Shown here in pieces: positions 12,791 to 31,032 of a DNA stretch of 64,000 nt. Under the pieces are notes generated by a model. The model had not been told where the DNA came from, ran no database searches, and worked only from the letters and a program-made list of their open reading frames with translations. Each line of letters begins with the position of its first letter. Positions within the stretch are counted from its first letter, which is position 1. Both the position numbers and the translations under genes were made by a program. Source of the DNA: Vulcanimicrobiota bacterium (GTDB taxonomy: Bacteria; Vulcanimicrobiota; Xenobia; Xenobiales; JADMJV01); contig JAFKGI010000018.1 of the NCBI GenBank assembly GCA_017307785.1, positions 62,001-126,000 on the forward strand, read 5' to 3'.

Positions 12791-15700
12791 ATGGCGATCT
12801 TTGGGCCGAAAATCGAAAACACGCAGCAGCTCGCAGCCGAGACGCTGAAACGCATGACGAAAGGCTTCTGGGGCGGCGAACCGACCGACCTGGAGCGAGT
12901 CGAGCTGGGTGATAAGTTCGTCTCCGAGCTGCCGGGCGTCAGCAAGAACCCTCTGGAGAAAAGCCTGGCCGAAGTGGCCCAGCGTTCGGCTGGAGACGTG
13001 CGCGCGGTGGCCGGCAAAGTCGCCCTCTACCGCACCGCCATCGAAGCCATGTCTCAGCAATTGACCGGCAGTGCCGGCGGCGTGATGGCCGGTGTGGCCA
13101 CCAAAGTCATGCAGCAGAACGGCCTGCTTCAGCCGGAAGAACGCGCTCGCGTGGGCGAGCGCTTTCTCAGCGGCATTGCTCAGTCCACCCAGAATGACGC
13201 CGAGAAAACGCTCAGCAATCTGACCCTGTCCGCCAACAAGGCGTTGACCCCCGGGGTTCAGGGCGCGCTGGCTCAAGCCAGTTTGCAGACGCTGTCGCAG
13301 GGCCTGACCGGCATCACCGGACCGGTGTTGGCCAAGGTGGGCTCCTCCGCACTGGGCCTGGCTTCCGCGCAGACGCCCGCCGACCAGGCCGCGCTGGGAG
13401 CCTCGGTGTTGGCCGCCATCACCGCCTCGGCCAACGCCAACGAAGCGGAAAGAACCTTGCTCAGCACTCTGGGCGCCGCCGGCAAAGAGCTGGCGGCCAC
13501 TTCCCAGACGGCCCTGGCCCAGGCGGGTCTGGAAGCGGTGGCTCAAGGAGTCACCTCGCTGACCGGTCAAAAGTTGGCCGAGGTCGCCGGAAAAGCCATG
13601 AACCTGACCAGTGCGGGCAAAGCCGCCGATCGCGACGCCCTCTCGGGGGCCCTGTTGGGCCACCTGGTCCATTCTCCGGTGTGTAACGAGGCCGAAAAGT
13701 CGCTGTATCGCACCATCAATCTGATCTGTCACAATGTGCACGAGAGCCGGGTTCCTCTCGGTCAGGCCACCCTGGCCCATATCGCCGGGGGAATTACCAC
13801 CGTGACCGACCGCACCCTGGCGCAAATCGGCAGCCAGGCGTTGGCTCTGGCGGGCAATGCCCCGCCTAACGAGAAAGCCGCTCTGGGCACGGCCGTGCTC
13901 GAGAGTTTTGCCGAATCGGCGGAAGCCACTCCGGCAGCCAAGGAGTTCGTCCAGAGCCTGGTCACGGCCATCGATCCCCTGGCTTATGCTTCGCAGGGGG
14001 CCCTGATTCGAGCCGCCTTCCAGAGCTTGTCGGCCGGCGAGTGCCCCAAGTCCATGACGGAACTGGCCGCCTTCGGCCAGGCCGCCATGGAACAGGCCAA
14101 GGCGGCCCAACCCCAGGAACAGGCGGCCGTGGGCCAGACCGTCCTCAAGCTCATCGGCCAGCTCCCCAGCCTGGATCCCGCGGAAAAAGTCTTTGCGGAA
14201 GCCGTGCTCCAGGCGGGTGAACAGCGGACCCCCGGCACTCAGGTTGCCCTGGTTCAGGCCGGACTCAAGCAGCTCACCACCCGGCTGACCGGACCGGTCG
14301 GCAAAGCTCTGGCCTCGCTGGTGCTGGAAACCAAGGTGGACCCGAAAGACCAGGCTGCGGTCAGCAGCGCCATGCTGGCCGGAATCGCCGAGCACGGCAC
14401 CAGCGAAGACGAGAAGCGCATCAGCCGCATGAGCGCCGAAGCTGCCGCCAAGTTCCCGGCCACCGCCGCCAACGCCATCGCCCAGTCCACCTTGCGCGTG
14501 CTGGCCAAGGGCATGGACAAGCCGCTGGACGCCACCCTGGGCGACTTGGGCAAAGAAACCATGGCGGCTGTCGCCAAAGGCACGCCGGAGGAACGCTCGG
14601 CCGTCGGCAGCTTCTTCCTCAACGCCATCGGCAACCAGTCCAACAACCCCAAGGAACAGGCCCTGTGCCGCGTGGCCACCGAGGTCTGTTCGGTGCAGCA
14701 GTCGGCCCCGGCCCGCGTGCAAGTGGTGGAAGCCACCCTCGACAAACTTTCCAAGGTCAGCGACGAGACGGCCGCGCAGGCGCTGGCGGGACTGGCCGTG
14801 CAACTGCTCCCCCATGTGAAAGGCGAAGCCGAGCAACGCAGCCTGGCGGTTTCCTACCTCTCGGGAATTTCCAAAGAAGGCAACGGGCTGAGCAAGCTGA
14901 TCGCTCCTCTGGCCGGTTATCTTGGGGATATCCCGTCTGGCCTGAAGCTGGCCCAGGCCACCCTGACGGCCATTCAGAACGGCCAGGATGATGTGGCCAA
15001 ACTGGGCCACGAAGTTCTCAGCGGCCTGCCCGCCGAAAAACTGGCCGAGCGCCTGAACATTTCGCGCACCCTGGTGCAGCACCTCAGCGACAAGGACGGC
15101 AACGCCGAAGCTCGCCAGCACCTGGAAAATTCCAGCCTGTTCCGCACCGACGAAGCGGTGGCTACCGTTTTCAGCGGCTTCCTGGCCAAAACCGCCGGAG
15201 CCGAGCCAGACGCCAAGGCCCTGGAAGCGGCCACCAAAGGCGAGCTGGAGAGCCTGCGCAAATCGGTGCTCGACGACGTCAGCGCCAACTGGCAGACGCG
15301 CATTGACCAGGAACTGACCCAGTCCATCGACCGCGGCAATATGCCCAAGCCGGAAGAGTTGGGCAGCACCACGCTGGCCAACTCCTGGGGGGAAATCGAG
15401 GCTCGTTTCAACGACGAAATCGAACAGCATCCGTTGCTGCGCCAGTCCAGCGCCGAAGAACGCCAGCAAGTGTTGGGTCAGGAGTCCTGGAAAGAATGGG
15501 CCGCTCAGTCCCGTTCCAGTCTCTCCTTCGGGGAGACCTTCTCCAAGGCTCAGCCCGAGGTCATCGCCTACTCGGGCAAGGACGACGCCGAAAAGAAGTT
15601 GCGCCAGACCACCATCGAAAAGATGGTCAAGCTGGACGAGCCGGCCGACGAACGGGACATGGCTCTGCTCAAGCGCAGCCTGAACACGTTGCCCACCGCC

Positions 15701-18700
15701 ATGCTGCAGGATCTGGAGAAGTTCAAATACTCCATCACGGTCACGCGCGACCGTGTCTCCAACGCTCACGCCAAACTGGAAGGCAAACTCGAAAAAACCG
15801 GCAGCCTGACCGACATGGACGAGGGGGCCCACATTTCCGAGCAGGGACAGAACCCGCGTATCCTGTTGCGCGCCAGCTGGAAGGGCGGCAAGCTGCACAT
15901 CGCGCCCGACTCGATGATGCGTCAGATCGCCAACGCCTACGACAAGGTGATGAACACCAACAGTTCCAGCCGCAATCTGTCCGAGCCCTTCAAGACGGAA
16001 GCCTCGCTGCTACCCGGGCGTTTTCAGGTGGACGTGGCCGCTTTCGGGGCCGAAATGTTCACCCGTTACCAGCTCGATCCGGATCGCATGTCCCGGCAGT
16101 TTCCGGCCTCTTTCGCGCTCTTGGAAAAAGGCTATTACACCAAGAATAAGGTGGACGCCAAAGCCCTGGCCGAGCTTCAGGTGACCACCCCTCCCATCGT
16201 GAACGTCAATCCCGACCCGTTTGCCGAGTTGCGCACCATCGAGGAACTGAACCGGGTGCAAAAAGCCCAGGGTCTGCCTCCGCTGCCCTACGTCTTCGAA
16301 ATCAAGGGCGAAGCTCAGCACAACGTCAACGAGTTGGTCAATCGACTGGGCGAGGCCCTGCGCGACGCCCGCAATCCGGGAGTGCCGCGCTGGCGCGAAG
16401 GAGAGGACGTGGTCCGCGTTCCGGCTGCGACCTTCAACAGCCCCACCGATATGGAGAAGCTGCTCAGCGAACAGGTGCAGGGCGGCCGCGCCTCCTTGAT
16501 GGTGCTCGACGAGCTGGGCCAGATTGGTCTGAGCAGCCCCGGCTTCGAGATTCTGGGCAAGTACATCGAACGCTTCGGCGGCCAGATGCCGCTGGTTTTG
16601 CAGGGTGGCACCTCCGACCTGGATCGACTCAAGAATGCGCTTCCTACCGTCACTCATCACCGTTTCAACACTCAGCCGTTGAGCGCCGGGATGATCACCA
16701 ACTTGCTGACCCAAAAAGCGCAGGCGGAAGGCTACGACCTCAGCCAGGAATCCATCAGCGCCATCGCTGCCAAAGCCAAGGACGGCGAGCTGAGTCAGGC
16801 CTTCACGCTCTGGCGCGGTGTCAAGTCTGCCCAGACGGAACGGGCCGCCACCCTCATGCCTTTCCTGGAGAAAGACCCCTCGGCGGTTTCCCGGGTGACC
16901 ACCACCGACGTGGCCAACGCCAAGATCATCAAAGAGAAAGATCCCCTGGACGAACTGGAGCGTATGACCGGCCTGGGCGCGGCCAAGCGCGAGCTGCGCA
17001 GCGTGCTGGCTCAGGTCAAGCTGCAGAAGGCTCAGCAAGAGTTCGGCATCACCGGCGATCCGCCACGATTGAACCTGCTCTTCGAAGGCAATCCCGGTAC
17101 CGGCAAAACCACCGTGGCCAAGCTGTTTGCCGATGCCCTGACCAAGGTGGGTTACCTTAAGAACAACAAGTTCAAGGAAATCCGCGTCCAGGATCTGCTC
17201 TCCGGCGGCAAGCCCGAGGAGAACGTCAAGAAGCTCTTCGAAGAAAACAAGGGCGCCGTCATCTTCATCGACGAGATGCACCAGCTCAAGGACACCGCCG
17301 AGGGCCGGCTGGCTTTCCGCTCCATGATTCCGTATCTGGGACATCCGGAGTACGCCGACACCGTCTTCATCGGCGCCGGCTACAAGGGCGAAATGCGCGA
17401 CCTGATCCGCGACGTGGACGACGGCGCCGAACGCCGTTTTACCTCGGTTCCTTTCGAGGATTATACGCGCAGCGAGCTGGGCTCGATTTTGGACAAAATG
17501 GTCGTCGACAAGCAGCGCGTGCTGGATGAGCCCACCCGTGAGGCGGCCCTGATGCGTTTGGAGCGCGAGCGGCGCAAGATGAAGAACTTCGGCAACGCCG
17601 GCAGCGTGATGTCGATGCTCGATATCGCCATCAAAAAGCAGACCACCCGCCTGACCAGTGGCGAAGTGGAGATGACCAAGGAAGCTCTGCAAATGCTGGC
17701 TCCCGACGATTTCGCCGCCGAGAAGGCGGTCACGCCCGACGAAGTCTGGGCCGAAATCAATGCCCTGGAAGGCCTCGACAACCTCAAGGCCGAGTTGCGC
17801 ACCCTCTGCGACTCGATCGAATACGACAAAGAGATGGGCAACGATCCGTTGGCCAGCTTCGAGCCCTACTTCATTCTCGACGGTCCTCCCGGCACCGGTA
17901 AAACCACCATGGCGCGCCTCATCGTCAAGCTGATGGCGGCTTACGACATCATCCCGAGCCACGGCCTGAGCGAAAGCCAGGGCGCGGATCTGCAGGCTGG
18001 TTTCGTGGGCCAGACCACCACCAAGGTGCAGAAACTCTTCGAAAGCATGTGGGGACAGGGCGGCTTCATTGACGAAATCGGCGGCCTGGCCCGCGCTCCC
18101 GAAGCCTTCAAGGCGGACGCGGCCAAGACCATGCTCAAGCAAATGGAGGACCACCGCGGTCGCTTCATCCTGGTGGTGGCCGACTACGCCGATCGCGTCA
18201 ACGACTTCCTCAATATCGATCCCGGTATTTCCCGGCGTTTCGGTCATCGCTTCAGCCTGGAACCGCTGGGCGAGGAAGCGGCCGTGCGCTCGCTGTGCAA
18301 GCAGTTGGCCGGCAAGGATCTGAAAGTGACCGACGAGGTGCGGGCGCTCATCGCCACCCGCATGACCGAGTTGCACGCGGCCCCCGATTGGGCCAGCAGC
18401 GGCGACGTGCGCAAGGTGCTCAACACGGTCGTCACCCAGCAGAAGACCTGTTTCCTGGAAGCGCGCGCCAATGGCCGCACCGTCGACCCCAAGGAACTGC
18501 TGCCCGAAGCCGTCAACAACGGATTTGACACCATCATGCGCGAGAAGAAAGCGCGTGAGGTTCCCATCGAGGAACGCCCCAAGGACGAGGGTCTGGCCTC
18601 GGAAACGGCGGCCGCGACCCAGAAGCCGACCGAGACCCAGGAGGTCGAGGAAGTCAAAATCACGGCGGAAGAGCAGGCGATTTTCGACGCCCAGGCTGAG

Positions 18701-19054
18701 GTGGACAAAGAGTTCGCCTCGCAGTTGGCCAGCGACCCGGCACTGCAGGCCAAGTGGGAAGCCGATCCCAACAGCGCTTACATCAAGCGCCTGGCCGAGA
18801 AGCTCGGGGTGACTCCGGAAGAAGCCATCAAGAGCCTTCAGGCGGTCAAGATCAAGGTCAAGAAGATGGTGACCAACGTCAAGCTGGTCAAACGCTTCGA
18901 ATATCACTGTCCCTATTGCGGCGGCATCAACAGCCCCACTTGCGCCTACATCGGTCAGAGTCTGGATTGGAAGATCCAGCACTCACTCAAGAAACCTTGG
19001 ACCGAAGAAGTCAAAGAGAACCAGGAAGTCGAGGTCGAGGTGAATCGTGATTAA
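12791..19054 (+). CDS. giant AAA+ protein 1: nine helical repeats plus tandem CbxX/CfxQ-type ATPases (2087 aa)
   Basis: Residues about 35-760 hold nine repeats of roughly 80 residues, each with a segment like LGASVLAAI followed by an acidic NEAE-type turn, probably an all-helical solenoid. Residues near 1236 (SLMVLDELGQI) look like a Walker-B strand of a degenerate ATPase module without a Walker A. Two complete AAA+ modules follow: GNPGTGKTT near 1433 with VIFIDEMHQL near 1489 and an ERRF arginine-finger candidate; then GPPGTGKTT near 1697 with GGFIDEIGG near 1756 and SRRF near 1813. The tail has a CPYCGG cluster near 2039. The ATPases resemble the CbxX/CfxQ (rubisco activase, EccA-like) branch, which remodels protein complexes. 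It overlaps its paralogue by eight bases. The substrate is unknown. Confidence 0.9.
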   Translation: MAIFGPKIENTQQLAAETLKRMTKGFWGGEPTDLERVELGDKFVSELPGVSKNPLEKSLAEVAQRSAGDVRAVAGKVALYRTAIEAMSQQLTGSAGGVMAGVATKVMQQNGLLQPEERARVGERFLSGIAQSTQNDAEKTLSNLTLSANKALTPGVQGALAQASLQTLSQGLTGITGPVLAKVGSSALGLASAQTPADQAALGASVLAAITASANANEAERTLLSTLGAAGKELAATSQTALAQAGLEAVAQGVTSLTGQKLAEVAGKAMNLTSAGKAADRDALSGALLGHLVHSPVCNEAEKSLYRTINLICHNVHESRVPLGQATLAHIAGGITTVTDRTLAQIGSQALALAGNAPPNEKAALGTAVLESFAESAEATPAAKEFVQSLVTAIDPLAYASQGALIRAAFQSLSAGECPKSMTELAAFGQAAMEQAKAAQPQEQAAVGQTVLKLIGQLPSLDPAEKVFAEAVLQAGEQRTPGTQVALVQAGLKQLTTRLTGPVGKALASLVLETKVDPKDQAAVSSAMLAGIAEHGTSEDEKRISRMSAEAAAKFPATAANAIAQSTLRVLAKGMDKPLDATLGDLGKETMAAVAKGTPEERSAVGSFFLNAIGNQSNNPKEQALCRVATEVCSVQQSAPARVQVVEATLDKLSKVSDETAAQALAGLAVQLLPHVKGEAEQRSLAVSYLSGISKEGNGLSKLIAPLAGYLGDIPSGLKLAQATLTAIQNGQDDVAKLGHEVLSGLPAEKLAERLNISRTLVQHLSDKDGNAEARQHLENSSLFRTDEAVATVFSGFLAKTAGAEPDAKALEAATKGELESLRKSVLDDVSANWQTRIDQELTQSIDRGNMPKPEELGSTTLANSWGEIEARFNDEIEQHPLLRQSSAEERQQVLGQESWKEWAAQSRSSLSFGETFSKAQPEVIAYSGKDDAEKKLRQTTIEKMVKLDEPADERDMALLKRSLNTLPTAMLQDLEKFKYSITVTRDRVSNAHAKLEGKLEKTGSLTDMDEGAHISEQGQNPRILLRASWKGGKLHIAPDSMMRQIANAYDKVMNTNSSSRNLSEPFKTEASLLPGRFQVDVAAFGAEMFTRYQLDPDRMSRQFPASFALLEKGYYTKNKVDAKALAELQVTTPPIVNVNPDPFAELRTIEELNRVQKAQGLPPLPYVFEIKGEAQHNVNELVNRLGEALRDARNPGVPRWREGEDVVRVPAATFNSPTDMEKLLSEQVQGGRASLMVLDELGQIGLSSPGFEILGKYIERFGGQMPLVLQGGTSDLDRLKNALPTVTHHRFNTQPLSAGMITNLLTQKAQAEGYDLSQESISAIAAKAKDGELSQAFTLWRGVKSAQTERAATLMPFLEKDPSAVSRVTTTDVANAKIIKEKDPLDELERMTGLGAAKRELRSVLAQVKLQKAQQEFGITGDPPRLNLLFEGNPGTGKTTVAKLFADALTKVGYLKNNKFKEIRVQDLLSGGKPEENVKKLFEENKGAVIFIDEMHQLKDTAEGRLAFRSMIPYLGHPEYADTVFIGAGYKGEMRDLIRDVDDGAERRFTSVPFEDYTRSELGSILDKMVVDKQRVLDEPTREAALMRLERERRKMKNFGNAGSVMSMLDIAIKKQTTRLTSGEVEMTKEALQMLAPDDFAAEKAVTPDEVWAEINALEGLDNLKAELRTLCDSIEYDKEMGNDPLASFEPYFILDGPPGTGKTTMARLIVKLMAAYDIIPSHGLSESQGADLQAGFVGQTTTKVQKLFESMWGQGGFIDEIGGLARAPEAFKADAAKTMLKQMEDHRGRFILVVADYADRVNDFLNIDPGISRRFGHRFSLEPLGEEAAVRSLCKQLAGKDLKVTDEVRALIATRMTELHAAPDWASSGDVRKVLNTVVTQQKTCFLEARANGRTVDPKELLPEAVNNGFDTIMREKKAREVPIEERPKDEGLASETAAATQKPTETQEVEEVKITAEEQAIFDAQAEVDKEFASQLASDPALQAKWEADPNSAYIKRLAEKLGVTPEEAIKSLQAVKIKVKKMVTNVKLVKRFEYHCPYCGGINSPTCAYIGQSLDWKIQHSLKKPWTEEVKENQEVEVEVNRD

Positions 19055-22000
19055 TCCCAATCCGACTCCCAGTTCCATCAAAGCGCAAGAAGGTCTGAAG
19101 GCGATGCCGCGCGGCACCGCCGTCAATCAGCAGGCCAAGACCGGCGATAGCTTCGTGGCCACCATCGGCAAGGAAACCACCGAACCGGCCGAGCGTGAGC
19201 TCTGCCGGGTGGTCCAGGAAACCGGTGCCAAAGTGGTTTCCGACGCCGGCAAAGCGGCCCTGACCCGGGCCACCCTGGACGCCCTGGCCGTGGGCGTGAC
19301 CGGCTCTTTGGGCGGAGTGCTGGCCGGAGTCGGCCTGGAAGTGCTGAACAAGGCCAGCAACACCCCTCAGCAAGACCAGGTGGTGGTGGGCCAGAAGCTG
19401 CTGAGCGAGATCGCCGCTGGCAGCGAGAGTGCGGAGGAGAAGACCCTTTCGGGCATGGCTCAGACGACTCTGGTGCGCCTGGATACCAACTATTCGAAAG
19501 TGGCCGTGGCACAGTCGATGCTGCAGGCCATTCACACCGGTCTGGCGGGATCGATCGGAGGCATTCTGTCCGGCGTGGGCGTGCAGGCCATGGCGGGAGT
19601 GGGGGAGGAGCAGCCCAAGAATCAGGCTCTGGCCGGCGCTCAGTTTCTCTTGAATATCGCCGAAAAAGGCTCTCCCGAGGAGCAAGAACTCAGCCGTATC
19701 GCCATCAGCGCCTTCAGTGCCGCCGACAGCCACGGTGCACGGAGCGCCGTGGCCGGTGCCGCTCTGTCCGTGCTGGCTTCGGGCGAAGCCCTTTCGCGTG
19801 GCCAGTCTCTGGCCAAAATCGGTCTGCAAGCCGTTTCCGAAATGGATCCCAAAGAGGTCAAGAATCGCTGCACCATCGGTCAGCGTTTTCTGGACGGAGT
19901 GGCCGCCTCGGTCGCTCCTGAGTCTCCCGAAGCGGTGATCACCCGATTGTCGGCCGCCACCTGCGAAGGCATGGATGACTATGGAGCGCGCGCCGCCGTG
20001 GCCCAGGCCACTTTGGGCGAACTCAATGGAAGTGGGGATCTCGATCTGCGCCTGGCCCGCATCGGCGCCACCGCCTTGACCGGTATCTCCGAGCATCAGC
20101 CGGTTCATCGTGCTGGTGCCGCCGCGGCTTTTGTCAACGCCGTGGTGGAGCACAGCGCCGACCCGGCTCGTCGTGAGGCGGGACAGGCCGCCTTGCAGAA
20201 GGCCGGCGAATCTTCCAGCTACGAAACCAAGGCCCAGGCCCTGGGCGAGTTTCTCCAGCAGTGCGCCCCGGACGTGACGCCGCTGCCCGCTAAAGCGACG
20301 GCCGAAGAAGCCAAGCCGGTGGTGGTGGGTCAGGCTCCGGCTCCGGCCCCTTCCGCCACCGCCGCGGAGAAGCCCAAGATGGACGATGCCAGCGCGGCCG
20401 AACTGAAGAAGGTCAAGGACAAAGTGACCGACAGCTTCAAGGACGACTGGGGCAAGCGCCTCGACGACGCCATCGCCAAGGGCATGACCGAAGGCAAAAT
20501 ACCGGTGCCGGCGGAGTTGGCCGAGCATCTGTTCCACGAGAGCTGGGGCAGCTGGCAGCTGAAGATCAACGATGCGGTCAAAGAGAACGAAAAGGTTGCC
20601 GCCTTGAGTCTCGAGCAGCAGTCGGAGCAGTTGGGCGAAACGGCTCTGCTCAAGTGGTCCGCCACCGTTCCGGCTCCGCTGACCTTTGGAGAAACCTTCC
20701 TGTCACGCACCGTCGAACCCGGCCCGCTCAGCGGAACGGACGATAAGGACCGCGAGACCCGTACCAAAATCATCAACAACATGGTCAAGGCTCAGTTGCC
20801 GGCCGATGGTCGCGATACCGACCTGCTGCGTCGGGTGGTGGACGTGCTGCCCACCAGCGTGCTGACCGAGTTGGAGAAGAACAAATACACCATTACCGTC
20901 ACGCGCGACCGCATCTCCAACGCTGCTTCCAAATTGGAAGGAAAGATGGAGAACGGCGCTCTGACGGACATGAACGAAGGCGCCCACATCGCCGAGCAAG
21001 GCCAGAATCCGCGCATTCTGGTGCGTTCCCACTGGAAACGGGGCGAGCTGGAAATCGATCCGGCCACCCTCATGCGCGAAATCGGTCGCGCTTACGACAA
21101 AATTTCCCAGACCAGCCGCTATTTCGCCGATGCCTTCAAAGCCGAAGTCAACGGCGTTCCCAAGCAGTATCAGGGCAACGTCAACGACTTCTTTGCGGAA
21201 ATGTTCCTGCGCTACAATATGGACCCCGAGCGTTGCGCCCGTCAGTTCCCGGTCTCCACCGCCGCCTTCGAGAAAAGCGGTTGGAATAAGGTCAAGTTCA
21301 ATCTGAAGGCCATGGCCGATCTGCAACAGTCGAAAGACCCGGTCGTCAACGTTTCTTCCGATCCTTACAAGGAACTGCGTACCTTAGAAGAGCTTAACAA
21401 GGTTCAGCAAGCCAAAGGCGTGGCCGTATTGCCCTACCGTTTCGAGATCCAGGGCGAGTCCAGCCACAACACCAATGCTCTGGTGGAGCGTCTGGGTGAG
21501 GTGTTGCGCACTTGCCGCAGCGGCAACATTCCCAAGTACTCTCTGGGAGAAGGCGCGGTCCGCATCCCCGCGGCCACCTTCAACAATCCCCAGGATCTGG
21601 AGAAGCTGCTCAATGACCAGGTGCAGGCCGGTCGCGGCAGCTTCCTGGTGCTCGATGAACTGAGCGGACTCAAGACCGATAGTCCCGGTTTTGGCACCCT
21701 GTCCAAATATGTGGAACGATTCGGCGGTCAGACGCCGCTGCTGCTGCAGGGCAGCAATTCCGATTTGAACCGTCTGCGCGAAGCCTTGCCCACGGCCGTG
21801 CAGAAGCGCTTCAGCACCTCTCCTTTGACGGCTCCCATGATCACGGAGCTGGTCGTGCAGAACGCCTCCGCCGAGGGCTACGACGTCAGCGCCGAGGCCA
21901 AAGCGGCGCTGGGAACCAAAGCCAAGGATGGCGAAGTCAGTCAGATGTTCTCGATGTGGAACGGTGTCAAAACCTACCAGACCGAGCGGGCCACCGACCT

Positions 22001-23762
22001 GCTGCCTTTCTTGAAGATGAATCCCCTGGGCGTGCGCCGCGTGATTACCACCGACGTCAACAACGCCAAGCTCTCGCGTGAGAAAGATCCGCTGGAAGAG
22101 ATGGAGCGTCTGGTCGGTCTGGGCAACGCCAAGAAAGAGCTGCGGGCCGTGCTGGCCCAGGTCAAGCTGCAAAAGCAGCAGGAAGCTTTCGGCATGACGG
22201 CCGAGCGTCCGCGCCTGAACCTGCTGTTCGAAGGCAATCCCGGCACTGGTAAAACCACCGTGGCCAAGCTGTTCTCGGATGCCCTCACCCGCGTCGGCTA
22301 CCTGAAGAACAACAAGTTCAAGGAAGTCCGCGTGCAGGACTTGATCACCGGTGGTAAGCCGGAGGAGAACGTCAAAAAGCTCTTCGAGGGCAACAAAGGC
22401 GGCGTGATCTTCCTGGACGAGATGCACCAGCTCAAGGATACTCCCGAGGGTCGTCTGGCCTTCCGCGCCATGATTCCTTACCTGGGTCATCCCGAGTATG
22501 CCGACACCGTCTTCATCGGCGCCGGCTATAAGGGCGAGATGCGCGACCTGATCCGCGACGTGGACGACGGTGCCGAACGCCGCTTCACCTCGGTTCCTTT
22601 CGATGACTACAGCAAGGACGAGCTGGGCAAGATCCTGGACAAGATGGCCGTGGACAAGCAGCGCGTCATCGACGAGCCGACCCGCGAAGCGGCCCTGATG
22701 CGCCTGGAGCGTGAGCGCCGCAAGATGAAGAACTTCGGCAACGCCGGTAGCGTGGCGTCGATGATCGAGATCGCCATCAAGAAACAGACGGCTCGTCTCT
22801 CTGAGGGCGATGTCGAGTTGAGCAAGGAAGTGCTGATGGGTCTGATCCCGGAAGACTTTGCCGCCGAGAAGGTGCTTTCGCCCGCAGAAGTGTGGAAAGA
22901 GATTGACGCTCTCGAGGGTCTGGATACGCTCAAGAAGGAGCTGCGCACCATTTGCGCCTCCATCGAGTATGACCGCGAGATGGGCAACGATCCGCTGGAC
23001 AGCTTCGAGCCTTATTTCATCCTGGATGGACCTCCCGGCACCGGCAAAACCACTATGGCGCGCTTGATCGTCAAGCTCATGGCCGCCTATGACATCATTC
23101 CCAGCGCCGGTCTGGCCGAGAGCCAGGGTGCGGATCTACAGGCCGGTTTCATCGGTCAGACCACCACCAAGGTGCAGAAGCTGTTCGAGAGCATGTGGGG
23201 CCAGGGCGGCTTCATCGACGAAATCGGCGGTCTGGCGCGCGCCCCGGAAGCTTTCCAGGCCGACGCCGCCAAGACCATGCTCAAGCAGATGGAGGACCAC
23301 CGCGGTCGCTTCATCCTGGTGGTGGCCGACTATGCCGACCGCGTCAACGAGTTCCTCAACGTCGACCCCGGTATCGCCCGTCGCTTTGGCCATCGCTTCA
23401 GCCTCGAGCCTCTCAGTATTGAGGGAGGCGTGCGTTCGCTGTGCAAGCAACTGGGGGCCAAGGACCTGGTGCTGACCGATGAAATCAAGACCCTGATCGA
23501 GGCGCGCATGAAGGATCTGCACGCCGCCCCCGACTGGGCCAGCAGCGGCGACGTGCGCAAGGTGCTCAATTCCATCGTGACCAAGCAGAAGACGGCTTTC
23601 ATGAACGCCCGCAAGGCCGGCCAGAAAGTCGATCCCAAGCAGCTGCTGCCGGAGGCCGTCAACGGCGGTTTCGACAGCTTGATCAAGGAAAAGAACGCCA
23701 AGGGCCCACAGAAGAAGTCGTTCCAGGATGAGATGCGCGAGTTCTTAAACAAGCGCGGCTAA
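19047..23762 (+). CDS. giant AAA+ protein 2: paralogue with five helical repeats and tandem ATPases (1571 aa)
   Basis: The GTG start overlaps the end of protein 1 by eight bases, with GAGGTG four bases upstream, so translation is probably coupled. About five of the same 80-residue helical repeats occupy residues 25-400. A Pro/Ala linker (APAPAPSATAAEKP) follows, then a charged helical segment. The degenerate module and two AAA+ modules come next: Walker A GNPGTGKTT near 1061 with VIFLDEMHQL near 1120, and GPPGTGKTT near 1327 with GGFIDEIGG near 1386. From residue about 440 on it aligns along its whole length with protein 1, often identical for long stretches. It lacks the Cys-rich tail. The two may form a hetero-oligomer. 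Confidence 0.9.
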   Translation: MINPNPTPSSIKAQEGLKAMPRGTAVNQQAKTGDSFVATIGKETTEPAERELCRVVQETGAKVVSDAGKAALTRATLDALAVGVTGSLGGVLAGVGLEVLNKASNTPQQDQVVVGQKLLSEIAAGSESAEEKTLSGMAQTTLVRLDTNYSKVAVAQSMLQAIHTGLAGSIGGILSGVGVQAMAGVGEEQPKNQALAGAQFLLNIAEKGSPEEQELSRIAISAFSAADSHGARSAVAGAALSVLASGEALSRGQSLAKIGLQAVSEMDPKEVKNRCTIGQRFLDGVAASVAPESPEAVITRLSAATCEGMDDYGARAAVAQATLGELNGSGDLDLRLARIGATALTGISEHQPVHRAGAAAAFVNAVVEHSADPARREAGQAALQKAGESSSYETKAQALGEFLQQCAPDVTPLPAKATAEEAKPVVVGQAPAPAPSATAAEKPKMDDASAAELKKVKDKVTDSFKDDWGKRLDDAIAKGMTEGKIPVPAELAEHLFHESWGSWQLKINDAVKENEKVAALSLEQQSEQLGETALLKWSATVPAPLTFGETFLSRTVEPGPLSGTDDKDRETRTKIINNMVKAQLPADGRDTDLLRRVVDVLPTSVLTELEKNKYTITVTRDRISNAASKLEGKMENGALTDMNEGAHIAEQGQNPRILVRSHWKRGELEIDPATLMREIGRAYDKISQTSRYFADAFKAEVNGVPKQYQGNVNDFFAEMFLRYNMDPERCARQFPVSTAAFEKSGWNKVKFNLKAMADLQQSKDPVVNVSSDPYKELRTLEELNKVQQAKGVAVLPYRFEIQGESSHNTNALVERLGEVLRTCRSGNIPKYSLGEGAVRIPAATFNNPQDLEKLLNDQVQAGRGSFLVLDELSGLKTDSPGFGTLSKYVERFGGQTPLLLQGSNSDLNRLREALPTAVQKRFSTSPLTAPMITELVVQNASAEGYDVSAEAKAALGTKAKDGEVSQMFSMWNGVKTYQTERATDLLPFLKMNPLGVRRVITTDVNNAKLSREKDPLEEMERLVGLGNAKKELRAVLAQVKLQKQQEAFGMTAERPRLNLLFEGNPGTGKTTVAKLFSDALTRVGYLKNNKFKEVRVQDLITGGKPEENVKKLFEGNKGGVIFLDEMHQLKDTPEGRLAFRAMIPYLGHPEYADTVFIGAGYKGEMRDLIRDVDDGAERRFTSVPFDDYSKDELGKILDKMAVDKQRVIDEPTREAALMRLERERRKMKNFGNAGSVASMIEIAIKKQTARLSEGDVELSKEVLMGLIPEDFAAEKVLSPAEVWKEIDALEGLDTLKKELRTICASIEYDREMGNDPLDSFEPYFILDGPPGTGKTTMARLIVKLMAAYDIIPSAGLAESQGADLQAGFIGQTTTKVQKLFESMWGQGGFIDEIGGLARAPEAFQADAAKTMLKQMEDHRGRFILVVADYADRVNEFLNVDPGIARRFGHRFSLEPLSIEGGVRSLCKQLGAKDLVLTDEIKTLIEARMKDLHAAPDWASSGDVRKVLNSIVTKQKTAFMNARKAGQKVDPKQLLPEAVNGGFDSLIKEKNAKGPQKKSFQDEMREFLNKRG

Positions 23763-29253: not shown

Positions 29254-31032
<1,779 letters not shown>

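What the first reader, a model, noticed from the sequence alone, without database searches (positions are those of the whole stretch)
12791..23762. Tandem giant AAA+ paralogues with helical-repeat arms: a candidate undescribed remodelling system
Two overlapping genes encode proteins of 2087 and 1571 residues that share a degenerate ATPase-like module and two complete CbxX/CfxQ-type AAA+ modules. They differ in the number of about 80-residue N-terminal helical repeats (nine versus five) and in the C-terminal tail. Coupled translation suggests a hetero-oligomer. CbxX-like ATPases are known from rubisco activation and type VII secretion, but this architecture with long solenoid arms is unfamiliar to me, and no rubisco or ESX genes are present here.
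Basis: partly seen in the sequence, partly recalled or inferred. Interest (0 to 1): 0.85.

Follow-up and report, generated by a model that had tools for sequence, protein, structure and literature searches.

The report
Paired AAA+ motors with dead-protease domain
Two neighbouring genes in an uncultured bacterium (phylum Eremiobacterota) encode giant protein-remodelling motors built from a helical arm, an inactivated protease domain and three motor modules, a combination I could not find described before; what they act on is unknown.

Summary
Genes A (12791-19054, 2087 aa) and B (19047-23762, 1571 aa) overlap by 8 bp. They carry nine and five ~82-residue helical repeats, one degenerate and two intact AAA+ modules of the CbbX/SpoVK/EccA clade; A alone has a conserved CPYC..C tail. 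Between arm and motors lies a domain whose predicted fold matches only ATLF/M34 metallopeptidases (Pro-Pro endopeptidases and relatives; all 50 listed PDB matches), with the zinc-binding HExxH changed to R-[EQ]-I-x-x in all ten homologues: a pseudo-peptidase. All domains, dead ones included, are under purifying selection. The pair is an old duplication (A, B, C, D are separate clades) in 4 of 5 genomes of one Eremiobacterota genus and nowhere else in the phylum sampled. Repeat number is fixed per paralogue. The repeats alone occur more widely. No rubisco or WXG100 gene is in the genome. Most likely a cytoplasmic, target-specific remodelling ATPase that uses a dead peptidase fold to hold its client; the client is unknown and hetero-oligomerisation untested. 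A new variant of a known AAA+ clade.

The parts
12791..19054 (+). Gene A, 2087 aa giant AAA+ protein
   Evidence: orthologues in G001, G002, G003 68-80% identical
12893..15022 (+). A: nine ~82-residue helical repeats (aa 35-744), alpha-solenoid arm
   Evidence: nine HMM units; fold by homology to the B arm model
15221..16210 (+). A: helical linker plus degenerate ATLF/M34 (PPEP-like) domain (aa 811-1140)
15920..15934 (+). A: RQIAN in place of the HExxH zinc motif
   Evidence: alignment to intact ATLF proteins of the phylum
16208..16933 (+). A: degenerate AAA+ module 1 (no Walker A lysine)
16934..17731 (+). A: AAA+ module 2, CbxX type, intact Walker A/B, AAA_lid_6; sensor-2 arginine missing (GNAG)
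17732..18556 (+). A: AAA+ module 3, intact Walker A/B and sensor-2 arginine
18563..19051 (+). A: C-terminal tail with conserved CPYCGGINSPTC (18908-18943), candidate zinc knuckle; shared with paralogue D
19047..19054 (+). 8-bp overlap of A and B; same in G003
19047..23762 (+). Gene B, 1571 aa giant AAA+ paralogue
   Evidence: orthologues about 80% identical in G001, G002, G003
19131..20306 (+). B: five ~82-residue helical repeats, alpha-solenoid
   Evidence: AlphaFold2 model pLDDT 91.7, pTM 0.85, 20 helices
20379..21356 (+). B: helical linker plus degenerate ATLF/M34 (PPEP-like) domain (aa 445-770)
   Evidence: model pLDDT 77.5; Foldseek PDB hits all PPEP-1/2/3 and lethal factor, best E 1.6e-4
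21075..21089 (+). B: REIGR in place of the HExxH zinc motif
21354..22076 (+). B: degenerate AAA+ module 1
   Evidence: (hhalign to AAA3 probability 84)
22077..22871 (+). B: AAA+ module 2, CbxX type, intact Walker A/B
   Evidence: (CbbX 3syk E 2e-25)
22878..23702 (+). B: AAA+ module 3, intact Walker A/B
   Evidence: (EccA1 9lur E 2.9e-19)

Best explanation
A and B are subunits of a cytoplasmic, ATP-driven protein-remodelling machine of the CbbX/SpoVK/EccA clade of AAA+ ATPases. Modules 2 and 3 hydrolyse ATP in stacked rings, and the degenerate module 1 is a structural ring layer. Just before the rings sits a catalytically dead ATLF/PPEP-like metallopeptidase fold. It has lost its zinc site and most likely serves as a peptide-binding or client-recruiting domain that hands a tail or loop to the motor. 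The N-terminal alpha-solenoid, of fixed length in each paralogue (nine or five units), is a docking arm that sets reach or partner choice. Because A and B are translationally coupled and both kept, they probably act together on one dedicated target, refolding or disassembling it rather than degrading it. Shown or strongly predicted: domain order, dead zinc site, dead module 1, intact motifs in modules 2 and 3, purifying selection, paralogue-specific repeat number. Inferred: ring assembly, A-B co-assembly, client recruitment by the pseudo-peptidase, identity of the client (unknown).
For: AAA modules: best NCBIfam matches are SpoVK (1e-64), EccA (1.9e-61) and CbbX (9e-49) for B, all below the equivalog cut-offs; PDB best hits CbbX and EccA1; Walker motifs conserved in ten homologues. 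Pseudo-peptidase: all 50 listed Foldseek PDB hits are ATLF/M34. Sequence support independent of the model: Pfam ATLF hits the G002 B orthologue; hhalign to nine intact ATLF proteins of the phylum gives probability 76.6, E 2.2e-5, against 0.3 or less for the AAA modules as controls; the top PDB sequence hit is also ATLF, at E 0.19, not significant alone. HExxH lost in all ten. Solenoid model pLDDT 91.7. dN/dS 0.03-0.25 in every domain. Fixed repeat numbers. Clade members are dedicated chaperones with variable N-terminal recruiting domains, and that study found no peptidase-domain association in the clade (PMC10659427).
Against: No client, no conserved functional neighbour, no experimental data. 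The core is found in only four genomes of one genus, and G004 of the same genus lacks it. AAA2 lacks the sensor-2 arginine, and both modules have Asp where the clade has Asn four residues before the arginine finger, so the ATPase cycle may be atypical. The mid-domain model has poorly modelled loops (residues 100-113 and 179-199) and TM-scores are moderate (target-normalised about 0.6). The hetero-oligomer rests only on gene overlap and co-conservation.
Confidence: 0.6

Rival explanations
1. EccA-like or SpoVK-like chaperone for the cell envelope or a secretion apparatus specific to this genus (a narrower version of the main model with a named kind of client).
For: Best equivalog-level similarity is to SpoVK and EccA; EccA also combines a helical N-terminal arm with a CbxX AAA module; known clade functions cluster in envelope and secretion (PMC10659427).
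Against: No WXG100 substrate in the genome; neighbours are not secretion genes; no sporulation link tested.
Confidence: 0.2
2. The proteins are part of an anti-phage or other mobile defence system: patchy, large AAA+ proteins with sensor-like repeats.
For: Patchy presence within the genus; in G004 the whole stretch between the S9 peptidase gene and the FtsH-like gene is about 2.2 kb instead of about 22 kb. PADLOC AAA+ hits (IetA, TRIP13).
Against: PADLOC hits cover only the generic AAA fold at low scores; no nuclease, toxin or other effector beside the genes; conserved synteny and A/B orthology across three other genomes argue for vertical inheritance; no viral relatives.
Confidence: 0.12
3. 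A and B are an ATP-dependent protease that keeps some peptidase activity through a rearranged metal site, like FtsH with a different peptidase.
For: The middle domain has a peptidase fold; the HExxH glutamate is kept in nine of ten and the second Glu of ExxAE in all ten.
Against: Both metal histidines are missing in all ten homologues and the first Glu of ExxAE (the expected third ligand) is not conserved; intact ATLF proteins of the same phylum keep all of them.
Confidence: 0.06
4. Selfish or decaying duplicated genes without a present function.
For: Narrow distribution; two degenerate domains in each protein.
Against: dN/dS well below 1 in all domains including the degenerate ones (0.06-0.18 for the pseudo-peptidase and AAA1), open frames and constant repeat counts.
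Confidence: 0.02

Closest known systems
EccA (ESX type VII secretion AAA-ATPase, NCBIfam TIGR03922)
   Same: N-terminal helical arm followed by a CbxX-type AAA module; AAA3 of B best matches EccA1 in the PDB
   Different: A and B have three AAA modules, an 82-residue repeat without a Pfam family, and a pseudo-ATLF domain; no WXG100 in the genome; score far below the equivalog cut-off
CbbX / CfxQ (rubisco activase)
   Same: AAA module 2 aligns over its full length, PDB 3syk E 2e-25; AAA_lid_6 present
   Different: CbbX is a single-module protein of about 300 aa; no rubisco large subunit in this genome
SpoVK
   Same: Highest-scoring NCBIfam family (E 1e-64 for B)
   Different: SpoVK is a single-module protein of sporulating Firmicutes (PMC10659427); score well below its cut-off
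Actinobacterial right-handed beta-helix plus tandem CbxX proteins (e.g. WP_331728106.1)
   Same: Tandem CbxX modules behind a large N-terminal recognition domain; 31% identity over both active modules
   Different: Beta-helix instead of alpha-solenoid, no match to the pseudo-ATLF region, 1113 aa
Pro-Pro endopeptidases (PPEP-1/2/3) and the ATLF/M34 family
   Same: Predicted fold of the middle domain
   Different: Zinc histidines absent, embedded in a AAA+ protein without signal peptide; PPEPs are extracellular active enzymes (PMC12828418)

Membership tests
CbbX/SpoVK/EccA clade of AAA+ | AAA+ core with Walker A/B and CbxX-type lid (AAA_lid_6) | tested here: met
   two stretches for SpoVK, EccA and CbbX models in each protein; AAA_lid_6 found once per protein
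CbbX/SpoVK/EccA clade of AAA+ | Conserved Tyr (GY) at sensor 1 (PMC10659427) | tested here: met
   AAA2 GAGY in all ten; AAA3 has ADY, Tyr kept but Gly replaced
CbbX/SpoVK/EccA clade of AAA+ | Asn four residues before the first arginine finger (PMC10659427) | tested here: not met
   Asp at the corresponding place by my reading in both modules: DGAERRF and DPGIARRF. Overall score still places the modules nearest this clade, so I call them clade-like with a diverged signature
CbbX/SpoVK/EccA clade of AAA+ | Sensor-2 arginine | tested here: inconclusive
   present in AAA3 (GDVRK), absent in AAA2 (GNAGSV)
EccA (TIGR03922) | score over the curated equivalog cut-off and occurrence with ESX genes | tested here: not met
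   194.6 and 208.3 bits against 466.65; no WXG100 in genome
CbbX (TIGR02880) | score over cut-off and presence of rubisco | tested here: not met
   163.2 and 166.2 bits against 459.25; no RuBisCO_large
ATLF/M34 peptidases (as a fold) | ATLF/PPEP fold with active-site helix | tested here: met
   Foldseek probability 1.00 to PPEP-1 and relatives only; hhalign to intact phylum members. Rests on a predicted model
ATLF/M34 peptidases (as active enzymes) | HExxH plus third ligand Glu | tested here: not met
   R-[EQ]-I-[GA]-[RKNE] in all ten
Hetero-oligomeric A-B complex | physical association of A and B | not testable with these tools
   only gene overlap and co-conservation

The most novel reading that the evidence does not exclude
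A-B(-C) form a hetero-oligomeric AAA+ machine in which a dead Pro-Pro-endopeptidase fold reads a (perhaps proline-rich) client segment and feeds it to CbxX-type rings, with solenoid arms of calibrated length placing the machine on a partner. This would be the first peptidase-derived recruiting domain in the CbbX/SpoVK/EccA clade.
Probability: 0.3. Interest if true: 0.75.

Novelty: new variant of a known kind. Interest (0 to 1): 0.58.

Why it matters
The clade of CbbX, SpoVK and EccA consists of dedicated chaperones whose N-terminal domains are thought to choose the client, and the published survey found no peptidase-domain association in it (PMC10659427). A dead peptidase fold joined to three AAA modules in one chain would extend that rule, show how a protease can be turned into a client reader for a motor, and give a clear entry point (pull-down with the pseudo-peptidase domain) to a large uncharacterised machine of an uncultured lineage. 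The 82-residue repeat is also a protein family without a Pfam entry or clear PDB match that recurs across the phylum.

Tried and rejected
Rubisco and ESX context: none in the genome. Defence system: only generic AAA hits. Functional neighbours: nothing linked; GST, PD40 protein, YkuD, XRE gene, FtsH-like protease and others. Viral origin: no relatives in viral contigs. Solenoid fold match: none at E below 0.001 in the PDB, so I call it a regular alpha-solenoid and do not name a family. A conserved C-terminal VxIGGxR motif of the stand-alone repeat proteins was followed as a possible common tag, but it is at chance level in this genome and absent from A and B. The other CbxX protein of this genome (contig C18) has three N-terminal repeats that look to me like degenerate metzincins, but no database search supports it, so it is left as a lead.

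Full report
Where it is. The window is part of a 7.65 Mb genome in 82 contigs. Its relatives among named records are Candidatus Eremiobacterota genomes. Gene A (12791-19054) and gene B (19047-23762) overlap by 8 bp.

An iterated repeat HMM finds nine units in A and five in B. The same numbers recur in every complete orthologue tested (A 9/9/9, B 5/5/5), while paralogue C has seven or eight and paralogue D only one partial unit. Arm length is therefore a fixed property of A and of B. AlphaFold2 models the five-unit arm of B as a regular alpha-solenoid with mean pLDDT 91.7. No solved structure matches it at E below 0.001 and Pfam has no family for it.

The motors. Modules 2 and 3 have intact Walker A and B motifs in all ten homologues, and CbxX-type features. 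The best NCBIfam models are SpoVK, EccA and CbbX, all below their curated cut-offs; the best PDB sequences are CbbX and EccA1. Module 1 has no Walker A lysine and aligns with module 3 over most of its length (hhalign probability 84, E 7.6e-6), but only weakly with module 2. Details that differ from the clade: AAA2 lacks the sensor-2 arginine, and both modules have Asp where the clade has Asn before the arginine finger (signatures from PMC10659427).

The missed domain. Between arm and motors lies a stretch (B 445-770) with the sequence LMREIGRAYD...DFFAEMF, which reminded me of the HExxH...EYFAE pattern of ATLF peptidases. I tested this. A model built from ten homologues (pLDDT 77.5) matched, in Foldseek against the PDB, only ATLF/M34 structures in all 50 listed places: Pro-Pro endopeptidases PPEP-1, -2 and -3 and lethal factor, best E 1.6e-4, probability 1.00. 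Sequence evidence that does not depend on the model agrees: Pfam ATLF hits the G002 B orthologue (E 3.6e-4 in its genome; best 2.3e-4 for one member of the alignment), and hhalign against nine intact ATLF proteins from the same phylum gives probability 76.6, E 2.2e-5, with the motifs in register, against 0.3 or less for the three AAA modules used as controls. The top PDB sequence hit was also ATLF but at E 0.19, not significant alone. In all ten homologues both zinc histidines are replaced. In PPEP-3 the zinc is held by the two histidines of HExxH and a glutamate on a later helix (PMC12828418); that the first Glu of ExxAE is the equivalent here is my inference from the motif. This is a pseudo-peptidase.

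Conservation. The core (middle domain plus module 1) is found in 4 of 149 genomes of the phylum, all in one genus that has five members in the set. Gene order around the pair is kept in the other genomes that have it, as far as the contigs reach. In G004, same genus, the S9 peptidase gene and the FtsH-like gene flank about 2.2 kb instead of about 22 kb. A tree of the core separates A, B and C with full support, D being a long branch, so the duplications are older than these species. dN/dS (Nei-Gojobori) is 0.03-0.05 for modules 2+3, 0.06-0.18 for the pseudo-peptidase and module 1, and 0.15-0.25 for the arms. The dead domains are thus maintained.

Relatives of the parts. The repeats occur without the AAA core in seven further genomes of the phylum; one such protein is fused to an M13-like peptidase with intact HEVAH, my reading of the sequence. 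Tandem CbxX modules behind a different N-terminal domain (beta-helix) exist in Streptomyces.

How it probably works. From the clade (dedicated chaperones with variable N-terminal recruiting domains, PMC10659427) and the anatomy, I infer a cytoplasmic remodelling ATPase: the solenoid arm docks, the dead peptidase holds a client segment, modules 2 and 3 pull, module 1 is a structural layer. The highest hydropathy peaks of A and B lie inside modelled solenoid helices, not in an N-terminal signal. The client, the ring and the A-B complex are all inferred. I give 0.6 for the overall model, about 0.9 for the domain architecture, and about 0.4 for a true A-B hetero-oligomer.

Literature. Searches for CbxX with Eremiobacterota, CbxX with metalloprotease, and related terms found no description of this architecture; the library holds only open-licence papers. 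A PPEP-like protein of unknown function without detected activity, CD1597, is known from Clostridioides difficile (PMC11460543), but it keeps HExxH, and no AAA module is reported for it.

Novelty. The AAA modules lie nearest a known clade, so I file this as a new variant of a known kind, not as a new category.

Noticed in passing
L090, L091, L092, L093, L096, L098, L047 and pattern hits L108-L135: Stand-alone 82-residue-repeat proteins and other proteins of several Eremiobacterota genomes end in a conserved motif close to V-[VT]-I-G-G-[VL]-[RK]-[IVL], usually 5-30 residues before the stop; 12 hits in G026 and 8 in G017 against 2 and 0 for the reversed control pattern. Possible C-terminal tag; not enriched in the window's own genome.
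   Followed up: partly
L095:3493-5883 (-), genome G006: 82-residue helical repeat fused to what looks like an M13/neprilysin-like peptidase with intact HEVAH, a second link between these repeats and zinc peptidase folds.
   Followed up: no
L040:6992-10777 (+), own genome contig C18: Another CbxX protein (1261 aa, two AAA modules) with three N-terminal ~180-residue repeats that resemble degenerate metzincins to the eye; no Pfam or PDB sequence support. Lies beside a 1733 aa filamentous-haemagglutinin-like protein.
   Followed up: partly
L010:9209-13831 (+), genome G002: Fourth paralogue D: no long arm, a hydrophobic stretch and proline-rich N-terminus, same core and the same CPYCGG tail as A; could be a membrane-linked form.
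   Followed up: partly
L043:5182-10323 (+), L045:6851-12220 (-): Third tandem paralogue C directly after B in G001 and G002, with seven or eight repeats; not present in the window or in G003.
   Followed up: yes
window 29254-31032 (-) and L148: FtsH-like protease in the window and an intact ATLF-like protein of G026 share a short N-terminal DSVQL motif.
   Followed up: no
L136, L137, L138, L141, L144, L146, L148, L149, L150: ATLF/M34-like metallopeptidases with intact HExxH and of unknown role are common in Eremiobacterota genomes.
   Followed up: partly
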